Source: Brachycybe producta
Lineage: Eukaryota > Arthropoda > Diplopoda > Playtdesmida > Andrognathidae
Assembly: GCA_036925085.1 (NCBI GenBank)
Contig: JAUPFP010000006.1
Span: forward strand, 1,039,001 to 1,103,000
Direction of reading: 5' to 3'
DNA: 64,000 nucleotides
In this document: positions 8,528 to 62,429 of the stretch, one piece after another
Layout of the letters: each line of letters begins with the position of its first letter
Numbering within the stretch: position 1 is the first letter of the stretch
Made by a program: the position numbers and the translations under genes
The notes under the pieces: generated by a model
The model's input: only the letters and a program-made list of their open reading frames with translations
Database searches by the model: none
What the model was told of the DNA's origin: nothing

Positions 8528-11500
8528 ACTTTTACGGCATGGTGCAACTCACATTTACGAAAAGCAAACATTCAAATAAAAAATATCGAAACCGATTTTC
8601 GAAACGGTCTCATGCTTATGATGCTGTTAGAGGTCATTTCGGGAGAGACTCTTCCAAAACCCGACAAAGGCGATTTACGTTTTCACAGAATTGCAAATGT
8701 GAACAAAGCGCTGGACTTCATCAAAAGCAAAGGAGTCAAATTGGTTTCCATCGGCGCTGAAGGTTAGCACAAACAGGAGGAGGAACTAACTTGACTGAGC
8801 CATCTTAAGATCGTTATTTAACTGAAATTTCTATTTTATCGTAGAAATCGTCGATGGAAACATCAAGATGACTCTCGGCATGATCTGGACCATTATCTTG
8901 CGATTTGCCATTCAAGATATTTCCGTCGAAGGTGAAAAAATAATTTGTATTAAGAGAAAAATGAAGAACTAACTTCGGATTTCGGATTTTGTTATTACTT
9001 TCAGAGATGACTGCAAAGGAAGGTTTACTCCTTTGGTGCAAGAGGAAAACGGCGCCGTACAAGAACGTCAACGTTCAGAACTTCCATCTTAGGTACGTGT
9101 TACGGACCTTATGGTCGTGATTTCCCTGGTTCGATTTGTTTGTTCCTTCTAAACTCGTTGAACTCGTTACAGTTTCAAGGATGGTTTAGCTTTCTGCGCT
9201 CTCATTCATCGTCACAGACCCGACCTTCTCGATTACTCGAAACTTTCGAAAGATAATCCGTTAGAGAATTTGAACACTGCGTTCGATGTTGCCGAGAAGT
9301 ATCTCGACATACCTCGAATGTTGGATCCGGAAGGTACGGGTTTTTTCTTTTGTGTGTTTCTTGTTTAGTACTTTTATAATATCTTATTTTGAAAGAAACT
9401 TCAGAAGTTTCATTGAGGTCTTCCCATTAGAAAGTGAAAAAGGGCTAAAGAGGGTTGGGGGCTTTGAACAGTATCCGTAACCTTTGATATGGTTACAGTT
9501 AGGGGATGTAACAGTGAGCCTGATTTATTGCAGATTTCATCAATACGCCCAAACCGGACGAGCGTGCCGTCATGACCTACGTGTCGTGCTACTATCACGC
9601 TTTTCAGGGGGCTCATCAGGTAAAACGAGTGGTTTAGAGTGAATTTTTTTGTTTTTGCCTCGTTCTAACCGAAGTTCGTACGAACCAAAAGTGGGTTTGC
9701 TGTAGATAGCACGTTTGTTTGTGGCTGCTGCTGTTCCTGTTTCGTTTTATTATGAAACTTGAAAAAGTATAAATGTCTGAAAAGGTTTACGTCGAAGTAA
9801 TTTATGTTGTGTTTTTTTTTCCGGTTAGAATTCCTGCTTGTTATATTGTTGTATATATAACTCTTAGAAGATGAATTAAATATTAGGGAATGCTTCTGTG
9901 TTTCACGGTTCCTCGTGTTACTAACAAGTGCATCGTTTCCTTCTCAGTTTTCCCCCCTTATTTTTATAAGAATTTGAATATTGACTAAATATTTAAACTT
10001 GTGTGAAATAACATATATATTATGGTTATATTATAGTAAAAACCGTTTAACACGAACACGGATTAATAAAATGAGATAACACGAAATATATCCCGCAGTA
10101 AATGGTTTTTACGTATTTTTAATTTGTTAGCTGGACGAAACTGATTACACGAAATTTTTTTTCTAGCCCATGGCAATATGTTAAATATTTTAATTAGTTA
10201 GCTCGACGAAACTGATAAACATGAAAATATCGGTTTACACAAAAATTTTTTTCGATAAAAATATATGTTAAATCCTTTTTTTAGTACGAAAAAAAAAATG
10301 AAGACCTAGTTTTCCCAAATTTGTCAGTACCATAAATTAATATATGCACATATAAATATAAAATACGCTTTTAAATCGTTTCCTTTTAACACGAAATTCG
10401 GTTGACACGAAAACATCTTTCATGTTAAGCGGTTTTTACTATGTGTGTTTGTGTACACCATTAGACATTAAACTATTGAGCCGTCTTTTTGCGCGACTAA
10501 CAGCACAGTATGGGCCTGGATTTTTTGGGCCGCTGTTTTCTTTTACAGATATGTGTACTTCTGCCATGCCTGATGAAAATTCTGTTATGACATACGTTTC
10601 TTCGTATTACCACACGTTTGCTGGCAAAATGAAGGTAACCAAACCACAACCTAATAATATCTTCATAAAGCAAGCTTCCTTTGCATAAGATGTTTTTATG
10701 TGTTATAACAGCATGCATTAACATATTAATTAATTTCAAAGCAGAATTAATTTTTCTATATTTTATGTATGTTTGAACTTCCGTTTTCATCGATAATTCG
10801 TAGGCCGAAACTGCTGCCAATCGGATTTGCAAAGTTCTAAAAGTGAACCAAGAAAATGAACAACTTATGGAAGAGTACGAAAAGCTGGCTAGTGAAGTAT
10901 GTTAAAAAAGTGTTTTGAGTGTTTAGAGAATTTACTCGACTATGGTTATAATTTTGTTGATTAGTTGCTGGAATGGATTCGTCGTATCACACCGTGGCTC
11001 GAAAACCGTGTGGTTGAAAACTCGCTTCCTGCCGTGCAGAAAAAGCTGGAAGAATACAGACTTTATCGACGAAAACATAAGCCACCTCGTGTAGAAGAAA
11101 AGGCCAAACTGGAGACAAACTTTAACACTTTGCAGACTAGGCTGCGTCTATCGAATCGTCCTGCATATCTACCCACGGAAGGCAAGATGGTGTCTGATAT
11201 TGCCAACGCTTGGAAGGGATTGGAACTGGCCGAGCGAGGATTTGAAGAGTGGCTTTTGTCCGAAATGATGCGATTGGAACGTTTGGACCATTTGGCTCAA
11301 AAGTTCAAGCACAAATGTGACATTCACGAAGAGTGGACTCGTGGCAAGGAAGAAATGTTGCAGAGTCAAGACTATCGTAACTGTAACCTTTGCGAAGTTA
11401 AGGCTCTGATTAAGAAACATCAGGCTTTCGAGAGTGATCTCTTTGCTCATCAGGACAGAGTGGAGCAAATTGCTGCCATTGCTAAGGAGTTAAAGTAAGT

Positions 11501-60306: not shown

Positions 60307-62429
60307 AGAGTTTATTTACATTGCTTACACCATCGGTTGTCTTCGGCCTGAACTTGTTGAACACGCTTTCGATAAAATGACGTCTGAAAAAATATCACGA
60401 GAAGAAGAAAAAAAAAGTTTAAGTTTACGTTTTCTCTTTCTCGAGAGAACGAGAGAGATAATTTCTTTACTTGGCACTGAGTCCACCACCGGGAGGAAGG
60501 TTAGGGATGTCTTCATCAGCCAGAGTCTGCATCAATTGAGGAAAGTCGATCGTGTTGCCCTGATCTTTACTTTGATCGCAAACCTCTGAAACAAAACCAC
60601 GCAATTAAGAGATGATTTCAAAGCGTAAAAGGCGCCGTTCCCGCAAACTCAATTCTGGTTTTTTATTTTCAGAGATAGAGAAAGTGAAATTTATTAGAAA
60701 CTAGAAGGGTAGCTCAATCACTTAAGGAGCAATTTCAGGTTTATCTTTTTTTAAAAAATAAGCTATGTTTATGGTAATTTGAAAATGACGGATATTTTTT
60801 TATTTTTTTTTTGGGTCTTTAAAAAGTTTATTTTGAAAGATATCAACCATCATGAAAATTTTTTCTAGTTTCTAACACAATTTCAATTTTTTTTAAGTGT
60901 TTGCTCTTCTTGAAACTGTAGAATAATCAGAATTTTAAAATCAGCTGTTTTTCTAAAACATTTCAAGAAGAACTTGAAAGTATTTTAGAAACTAGAAGGG
61001 TTAATAATAATTAACCTTATCCATATTTAAAAATTTAAATTGCATTTAAATCTTAAAACATGTTTTACAGAATCCTGTGAAGCCTTTTAAAAATGAGCTT
61101 TATATGTCTCAGTTTTTAAACTTAATTTTTTTTTTCTAAAAAAACTTTTATTTTGAAAGATATCGTCATTAAAAGTAGTTTCACTTCATTTCATTACTCT
61201 TTTAGTTTCCAAAATAAACCTTGAATTTCTTCTTTAAAAACATGATTTCTATTGAGTTTGAGAGAACTCTCGAAGCCGAAACACTTGTTTCGACGTAAGT
61301 TTCCTCATCCGAATTGTTTTCTAAGTTGGTTCCTAAATTGTTCCTCCGTTTCAGTCGCCTGAGAAGTTATACCTTTAACCTTCTTTTCAAGCAACATTTC
61401 CAGTTCTTTCTCTTTACTTATGGCATCTTGCGAAACCTTAGGCGAACCTGGAAATGTGACTAGCACAACGCTCATGTTGTCTCGACTCCCCTTTTTTTAA
61501 AGAAAACATTTCCAGTTAGTTCGTTACGAACGAAATATAATATTACTTTATATAATATTACTAAGTCGAACCTTATACAGACAGGTATCGACTACGAGGT
61601 TACAAATACTCTCGAGACTATCGGTGAGTTCGAGTCTATGTCGAATAAAATCGCAAAGCTCATCGTTAGACATGACGTCCCAGACGCCATCGCAAGCGAG
61701 CACGAGAAACTCGTCGTGTTCGTGATCTCGTTCGACAACAAAGATCTCCGGTTCGGGCGAAACGAGTTGTTCGCAAGGTCCCTTCCCCTCGACCTGTTTA
61801 TACTCGTAATCACCCAATGCTCGAGAAACAGCTAAAGATCCATTGACACGTTGTATCATGACGCTTCCACCGGCATTTTGAATTCTTTCCTTCTCGGAAG
61901 GATTCATCGGTTTGTGATCTTGCGTCGAGAATGCGATTCGACGTTCTCTCGACATAACACCTCTCGAATCGCCGCAGTTTGCTAAGAAAATATGATGTGG
62001 AGAAACGAGTGCGCAAACAGCTGTCGAACCACTCTTATCTTCTCCGCTTAACATTTCAGGCATTCCTCTCATTTTCTCATCTAACCTAAGGAAACCGTCT
62101 CTGATTCCTCTTTTGACATTATCGACAGCAGATTGCTCATCCATCGCAGCTTCGCACTTTGTAGCGCTATTACGAAAGTCTTCGCTTTGAGTAATCGAAT
62201 CGAGAAGATGTTCAGCGCAATGTGCCGAAACTCGAGCACCAGCATGACCATCAAAGACAGCAAAAAATGACCAATCTTTGAGACCTTGTGGTAGTCCTAG
62301 TTTAGCGCAATGGGCGTCTTCCATCTCAATTCGCCATCCTTGCATACTACTCAGGGCATACGAAAGACCGTTACCCAAACCCTGTTCATTGTACTTGTCA
62401 GTCTTTGGTTTATCCAAAAATGCGCCCAT
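60305..62429 (-). CDS. PPM1A: PP2C-type Ser/Thr phosphatase, PPM1A/PPM1B family
   Basis: Metal-dependent phosphatase that dampens stress-MAPK and TGF-beta/SMAD signalling in vertebrates. Exons in transcript order: 61572-62429, 61373-61490, 60471-60585, 60305-60383; 389 residues (human PPM1A has 382). It starts [10 protein letters not shown], a classic N-myristoylation start (Gly2). Catalytic residues are all present: R33, E37 and D38 ([10 protein letters not shown]), D60-G61 (FAVFDGHAG), D247 (ACDGVWD) and D290 (GSRDNMS); ANCGDSRG and [12 protein letters not shown] are conserved. The C-terminal helical region ([16 protein letters not shown]) is typical of PPM1A/B rather than of other PP2Cs. 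The paralogue identity (A or B) cannot be assigned. Intron 2 (787 bp) holds two copies of the TTAA-flanked MITE family. It is convergent with pecanex. Confidence 0.95.
60680..61230. mobile_element. Family A and A2 copies in PPM1 intron 2
   Basis: 60680-60965: TTAGAAACTAGAAGGGTAGC ... TTTTTCTAGTTTCTAACAC. 60985-61230: TTTTAGAAACTAGAAGGGTT ... ATTACTCTTTTAGTTTCC. Confidence 0.75.

What the first reader, a model, noticed from the sequence alone, without database searches (positions are those of the whole stretch)
8528..62429. ACTN-MLK-PCNX(-PPM1A) gene order matches a vertebrate paralogon
In one 54-kb stretch alpha-actinin, mixed lineage kinase, pecanex and a PPM1A/B phosphatase are consecutive (with RPS25 between). 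From established human gene locations, ACTN1/MAP3K9/PCNX1 (and PPM1A farther off) share 14q, ACTN2/MAP3K21/PCNX2 share 1q42-43, ACTN3/MAP3K11/PCNX3 share 11q13, and ACTN4/MAP3K10 share 19q13. One invertebrate locus with single copies of each looks like the pre-duplication ancestor of all four. Such tight microsynteny is unusual outside chordates and suggests shared regulatory constraint or slow rearrangement. It predicts a SIPA1-like gene nearby, because SIPA1, SIPA1L1 and SIPA1L2 neighbour PCNX3, PCNX1 and PCNX2.
Basis: partly seen in the sequence, partly recalled or inferred. Interest (0 to 1): 0.85.

Follow-up and report, generated by a model that had tools for sequence, protein, structure and literature searches.

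The report
Ancient animal gene neighbourhood, partly conserved
A stretch of an unnamed invertebrate's genome keeps together genes whose vertebrate relatives sit on several duplicated chromosome regions, most likely a leftover of a very old shared chromosome that was already described from amphioxus.

Summary
The window lies on contig C6 (9.58 Mb) of a 295-Mb, 442-contig animal genome. ACTN, MAP3K9-11 and PCNX belong to a published vertebrate tetra-paralogon (gpa2/gpb5; chordate proto-chromosome 11), and amphioxus actn, pcnx and map3k were already reported near gpa/gpb (PMC3280201). New here: linkage reaches beyond the window. beta-Spectrin, a PCNX4-like gene, glycogen phosphorylase and an EML-type gene are on C6; SIPA1L, PPP2R5, Pellino and EHD on C2. 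Reticulon is elsewhere, MAP4K unresolved. Of 6 families answered after both contigs had turned up, 4 lie on C6 or C2 (8% of the genome; P 5e-4). Best reading: conserved ancestral linkage, with MLK-PCNX the best candidate for old adjacency. I have no evidence for regulatory constraint.

The parts
8528..14518 (+). alpha-actinin (ACTN), CH1 exon to stop; exon 1 outside the window at about C6:1034703
   Evidence: exon models; Pfam CH x2, spectrin x4, EF-hand; PDB ACTN full length
9534..9619 (+). ACTN alternative exon a (end of CH2 and linker)
   Evidence: 86 bp, AG/GT borders, frame kept
10549..10634 (+). ACTN alternative exon b, same protein segment
   Evidence: 86 bp, AG/GT borders, frame kept; 15 of 29 residues identical to exon a
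18779..35042 (+). mixed-lineage kinase (MAP3K9-11/21 type): SH3, kinase, zipper-like segment, long C-terminus
   Evidence: the zipper label is by eye
40917..41426 (-). RPS25 (start-codon exon not resolved)
42368..56583 (+). pecanex (PCNX1-3 type); exact last exon not resolved
   Evidence: N-terminal segment recognised from recall (no Pfam match); Pecanex_C; start
60471..62429 (-). PPM1A/B-type protein phosphatase
   Evidence: last coding exon by eye

Best explanation
The five-gene run is a local piece of an ancestral animal linkage group (chordate linkage group 11, the pre-duplication form of the gpa2/gpb5 tetra-paralogon). Genes of that group stayed on one chromosome because exchange between chromosomes is rare, while order inside it was reshuffled and other genes (RPS25, UNC93-like, sushi, receptors) came to lie among them. 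Vertebrate whole-genome duplications made four copies of the same group, so the human neighbours look alike. Shown: gene identity and order, and further group members on C6 and C2. Inferred: that C6 and C2 are parts of one chromosome, that exchange was rare in this lineage, and that MLK-PCNX adjacency is itself ancestral.
For: Gene identity. Further members on C6: beta-spectrin 0.45 Mb, PCNX4-like 1.93 Mb, phosphorylase 2.20 Mb, EML/HELP best match 3.52 Mb. On C2: EHD 10.40 Mb, B56 12.03-12.14 Mb, Pellino 12.35 Mb, SIPA1L 13.37 Mb. 8 of 10 families on C6 or C2, P 6e-8; the fairer count, 4 of 6 families answered after both contigs had turned up, P 5e-4. Background: 13 of 146 kinase exon matches on C6 or C2 against 11.6 expected (only 122 of 531 candidates were scored there, and one of the 13 is the window's MLK). 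Literature: PMC3280201 for ACTN, MAP3K(9-11), SIPA, RTN and amphioxus actn/pcnx/map3k/map4k near gpa/gpb; PMC4236578 (passages) for EHD, EML, RTN, SIPA as four-member families each tied to a Dact locus; PMC4079206 for CLG11 genes kept together in human, amphioxus and limpet; PMC10751923 (passage) lists MAP3K9, PCNX1, SIPA1L1 consecutively and ACTN1 within one 3.89-Mb human 14q24 deletion.
Against: Reticulon is on C10. No clear MAP4K on C6 or C2: CNH matches with a listed kinase match within 20 kb are on C56, C94 and C180; the CNH match on C2 is weak (29.9 bits) with none within 50 kb. SIPA1L is not on C6. On C6 alone and without the two by-catch families the excess is modest: 2 of 8, P 0.026. 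Human membership of SPTB, PYG, PPP2R5, Pellino, PCNX4 and PPM1 is recalled. HELP also matches on C31, C3 (twice) and, with equal score, C158. No other eukaryotic genome could be searched.
Confidence: 0.83

Rival explanations
1. ACTN-MLK-PCNX(-PPM1) is an ancestral block held intact by shared cis-regulation (a genomic regulatory block or conserved ancestral microsyntenic pair).
For: MAP3K9 and PCNX1 stand next to each other in a human 14q24 gene list (PMC10751923; OMIM genes only); here only RPS25 was found between MLK and PCNX.
Against: The genes are a cytoskeletal protein, a kinase, a membrane protein and a phosphatase, not developmental regulators; RPS25 lies inside; MLK and PCNX point the same way here, while I recall head-to-head in human; clustering is near chance once linkage is granted (assumed density); SIPA1L is not in the block.
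Confidence: 0.1
2. Chance neighbours read as a paralogon after the fact.
For: Immediate flanks are unrelated or gene-poor; many families could have been matched after the fact; on C6 alone the excess without by-catch is 2 of 8, P 0.026.
Against: Families outside the window fall on C6 and C2 above contig share, while scored kinase exons do not (13 of 146).
Confidence: 0.05
3. A vertebrate locus or vertebrate contamination.
For: Human-like gene order.
Against: Contig of 9.58 Mb with ionotropic-receptor-like genes, invertebrate-looking by my judgement; one close ACTN and one PCNX1-3-type gene in the genome; RPS25 scores 175 bits against 4v6w_AZ (Drosophila by recall), above the listed single-stretch chains with 125-residue eS25 at about 167.
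Confidence: 0.01

Closest known systems
gpa2/gpb5 ([GPHalpha-GPA2-GPB5]) tetra-paralogon, from chordate proto-chromosome / linkage group 11 (PMC3280201; PMC4079206)
   Same: ACTN, MAP3K(9-11) and PCNX together; SIPA, EHD and EML families on C6 or C2
   Different: One copy where tested (ACTN, PCNX1-3 type); RPS25 between; SIPA1L and RTN not on the same contig; GPA2/GPB5 not searched in the genome
Amphioxus gpa/gpb neighbourhood with actn, pcnx, map3k(9-11), map4k (Kubokawa et al., as cited in PMC3280201)
   Same: Same three genes linked in an animal without the vertebrate duplications
   Different: No MAP4K found on C6; distances and order in amphioxus not seen by me
Human 14q24.1-q24.2 (PMC10751923 gene list)
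   Same: MAP3K9 next to PCNX1 in the list, ACTN1 in the same 3.89 Mb
   Different: Sixteen listed genes between ACTN1 and MAP3K9; SIPA1L1 follows PCNX1 there, PPM1 follows PCNX here

Membership tests
gpa2/gpb5 tetra-paralogon ancestor (CLG11 linkage) | ACTN, MLK and PCNX on one contig | tested here: met
gpa2/gpb5 tetra-paralogon ancestor (CLG11 linkage) | SIPA1-like gene linked | tested here: inconclusive
   absent from C6; on C2:13.37 Mb; whether C2 and C6 are one chromosome is unknown
gpa2/gpb5 tetra-paralogon ancestor (CLG11 linkage) | EML and EHD linked | tested here: inconclusive
   best HELP match on C6:3.52 Mb, others elsewhere; EHD on C2:10.40 Mb
gpa2/gpb5 tetra-paralogon ancestor (CLG11 linkage) | Reticulon linked | tested here: not met
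   both matches on C10:0.81 Mb; C10 could still be the same chromosome
gpa2/gpb5 tetra-paralogon ancestor (CLG11 linkage) | MAP4K linked | tested here: inconclusive
   CNH matches on C25, C56, C94, C180, weak on C2; none on C6
gpa2/gpb5 tetra-paralogon ancestor (CLG11 linkage) | MARK, KLC, FOS, GPA2/GPB5 linked | not tested
   not searched in the genome; a crude cystine-knot pattern over 264 kb gave nothing convincing
Regulatory microsynteny block | Same adjacent genes kept in several phyla with cis-regulatory contacts | not testable with these tools
   no other eukaryotic genomes, no chromatin data

The most novel reading that the evidence does not exclude
MLK-PCNX (possibly with ACTN and PPM1) is an unbroken microsyntenic core of the bilaterian linkage group, kept in this invertebrate and in vertebrate copies by regulatory entanglement rather than by slow shuffling alone.
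Probability: 0.12. Interest if true: 0.5.

Novelty: new member of a known kind. Interest (0 to 1): 0.3.

Why it matters
It adds an apparently unduplicated locus for a vertebrate tetra-paralogon and suggests that two contigs of this genome carry one old linkage group, which helps scaffolding and helps order the vertebrate duplications. It does not reveal a new mechanism.

Tried and rejected
Rfam (gathering scores) and ARAGORN (bacterial code) scans of the window: nothing. A home-made gene finder joined everything into giant genes; only its exon borders, checked by eye against homologues, were used. A suspicion of non-canonical introns inside ACTN was a misreading of letters, set right; only the end of exon 1 remains odd. 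The 40% ACTN match was first taken for a second actinin; it is beta-spectrin. Pattern scans for Rap_GAP, cystine-knot, MAP4K and RTN motifs in 264 kb gave nothing convincing. Paper searches: for the linkage (PMC3280201, PMC4079206, PMC4236578 and PMC10751923 were then looked into); 442 contigs and 295 Mb did not name the species (15 of 27 listed); Drosophila linkage, 0 papers with 4 of 5 terms; wider membership, nothing useful in the 12 of 25 listed; Irimia et al. 2012 is not held.

Full report
What is there. Exon models give, in order: ACTN (+) 8528-14518, MLK (+) 18779-35042, RPS25 (-) about 40917-41426, PCNX (+) 42368 to about 56583, PPM1A/B (-) 62429 down to about 60471. Pfam: CH, spectrin repeats and EF-hands for ACTN; SH3 and kinase for MLK; Ribosomal_S25; Pecanex_C; PP2C (the 51-residue PCNX N-terminus matched nothing). 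PDB: the three chains under E 1e-80 for MLK are MAP3K9 (two) and MLK4; PPM1A and PPM1B are nearly equal best for the phosphatase; 54 eS25 sequences for RPS25; full-length alpha-actinin. ACTN exon 1 lies outside, at about C6:1034703.

Surroundings. I took 100 kb on each side and scanned it for coding signal. Left: PHD-finger, nAChR-like, ionotropic-receptor-like, macroglobulin (MG4), sushi and UNC93-like genes (the UNC93 and Lig_chan matches are below Pfam's cut-off). Right: proline-rich predicted coding stretches (two of three were tested, one cut at 200 residues; no Pfam match), then about 90 kb with only weak coding signals. As far as I know the paralogon, these neighbours do not belong to it.

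Prediction of a SIPA1-like gene. Rap_GAP has 13 exon matches at 6 loci, 0 on C6. The best locus, C2:13372117-13377077, reads as SIPA1L: Rap_GAP by Pfam, and a PDZ-like stretch by eye only, without Pfam match. So the 'nearby' prediction fails. C2 is 13,956,435 bases long, and other members lie in the last quarter or so of it.

Wider linkage. Families examined outside the window, 10 in all: beta-spectrin C6:0.45 Mb (by-catch of the ACTN search); PCNX4-like C6:1.93 Mb (by-catch of the pecanex search; the PCNX4 label is mine and its N-terminal part had no Pfam match); phosphorylase C6:2.20 Mb; EML/HELP best match C6:3.52 Mb, with an equal-scoring match on C158 that may be a second haplotype, and matches on C31 and C3 (EML was not told apart from other HELP proteins); SIPA1L C2; B56, what looks like three tandem copies, C2:12.03-12.14 Mb; Pellino C2:12.35 Mb; EHD C2:10.40 Mb, with a weak C29 match; Reticulon C10, a miss; MAP4K, counted as a miss: CNH matches lie on C25 (beside a Rap_GAP), C56, C94 and C180, and weakly on C2. 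Thus 8 of 10 on C6 or C2 (P 6.3e-8) and 4 of 10 on C6 alone (P 2e-4); without the two by-catches 2 of 8 on C6 (P 0.026). C2 came up only through SIPA1L and B56, and no test set was written down beforehand, so the fairer count is the 6 families answered later: phosphorylase, Pellino, Reticulon, EHD, EML, MAP4K, 4 of 6, P 5.3e-4. These P values use contig length as the null and ignore gene density. Background: 13 of 146 kinase exon matches are on C6 or C2 (my count, where 122 of 531 candidates were scored; the window's MLK is one of the 13) against 11.6 expected.

How tight is tight. About 17 genes were seen by eye in 264 kb, or roughly 620 on C6. If 10% of them belong to the group, 0.29 five-gene windows with at least four members are expected by chance, and 1.4 at 15%. 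The density is assumed, not measured. So the run can be a local thickening within a conserved linkage group and is not strong proof of a constrained block. The pair worth testing is MLK-PCNX, neighbours in a human 14q24 list of OMIM genes (PMC10751923, passage) and separated here only by RPS25 as far as found. From recall, the human pairs are head-to-head; here both genes point the same way.

Prior knowledge. [quoted passage not shown] PMC4079206 (section 9 and passages) reports several genes near GPHbeta5 conserved on single scaffolds of amphioxus and limpet, assigned to CLG11; its text does not name actinin, MAP3K or pecanex. PMC4236578 (passages) lists EHD, EML, FOS, MARK, RTN and SIPA as families with members each tied to a Dact locus. 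Human places of SPTB, PYG, PPP2R5, Pellino, PCNX4, PPM1, SIPA1 and SIPA1L2, and a remembered linkage of Actn, pcx and slpr on the Drosophila X, are recalled and come from no call.

Verdict. A real and useful example of conserved animal linkage; the idea is already in print for amphioxus. Regulatory constraint is untested here, and slow exchange between chromosomes is enough to explain it.

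Noticed in passing
window 9534-9619 and 10549-10634: Two 86-bp ACTN exons encode alternative versions of the same segment at the end of CH2 (15 of 29 residues identical), both with AG/GT borders and in frame: candidate mutually exclusive exons.
   Followed up: partly
C6:about 1034857 (outside window, L018) and window 8528: ACTN exon 1 runs into sequence reading ATAAGT, and I saw no GT there that joins the CH1 exon in frame: unusual splice site, missed small exon or assembly error.
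   Followed up: partly
C2:12030345-12140843: PPP2R5 (B56) matches repeat about three times in tandem.
   Followed up: no
C158:122401 and C6:3515302; C94 and C180: Equal-scoring HELP and CNH match pairs on different contigs suggest uncollapsed haplotypes or recent duplicates.
   Followed up: no
L020-L028 (C6:1113001-1203000): Gene-poor stretch to the right of the window with only weak coding signals.
   Followed up: no
C25:1138988-1143864: Rap_GAP exons followed within 4 kb by a CNH match, an architecture like GARNL3 (label recalled).
   Followed up: no
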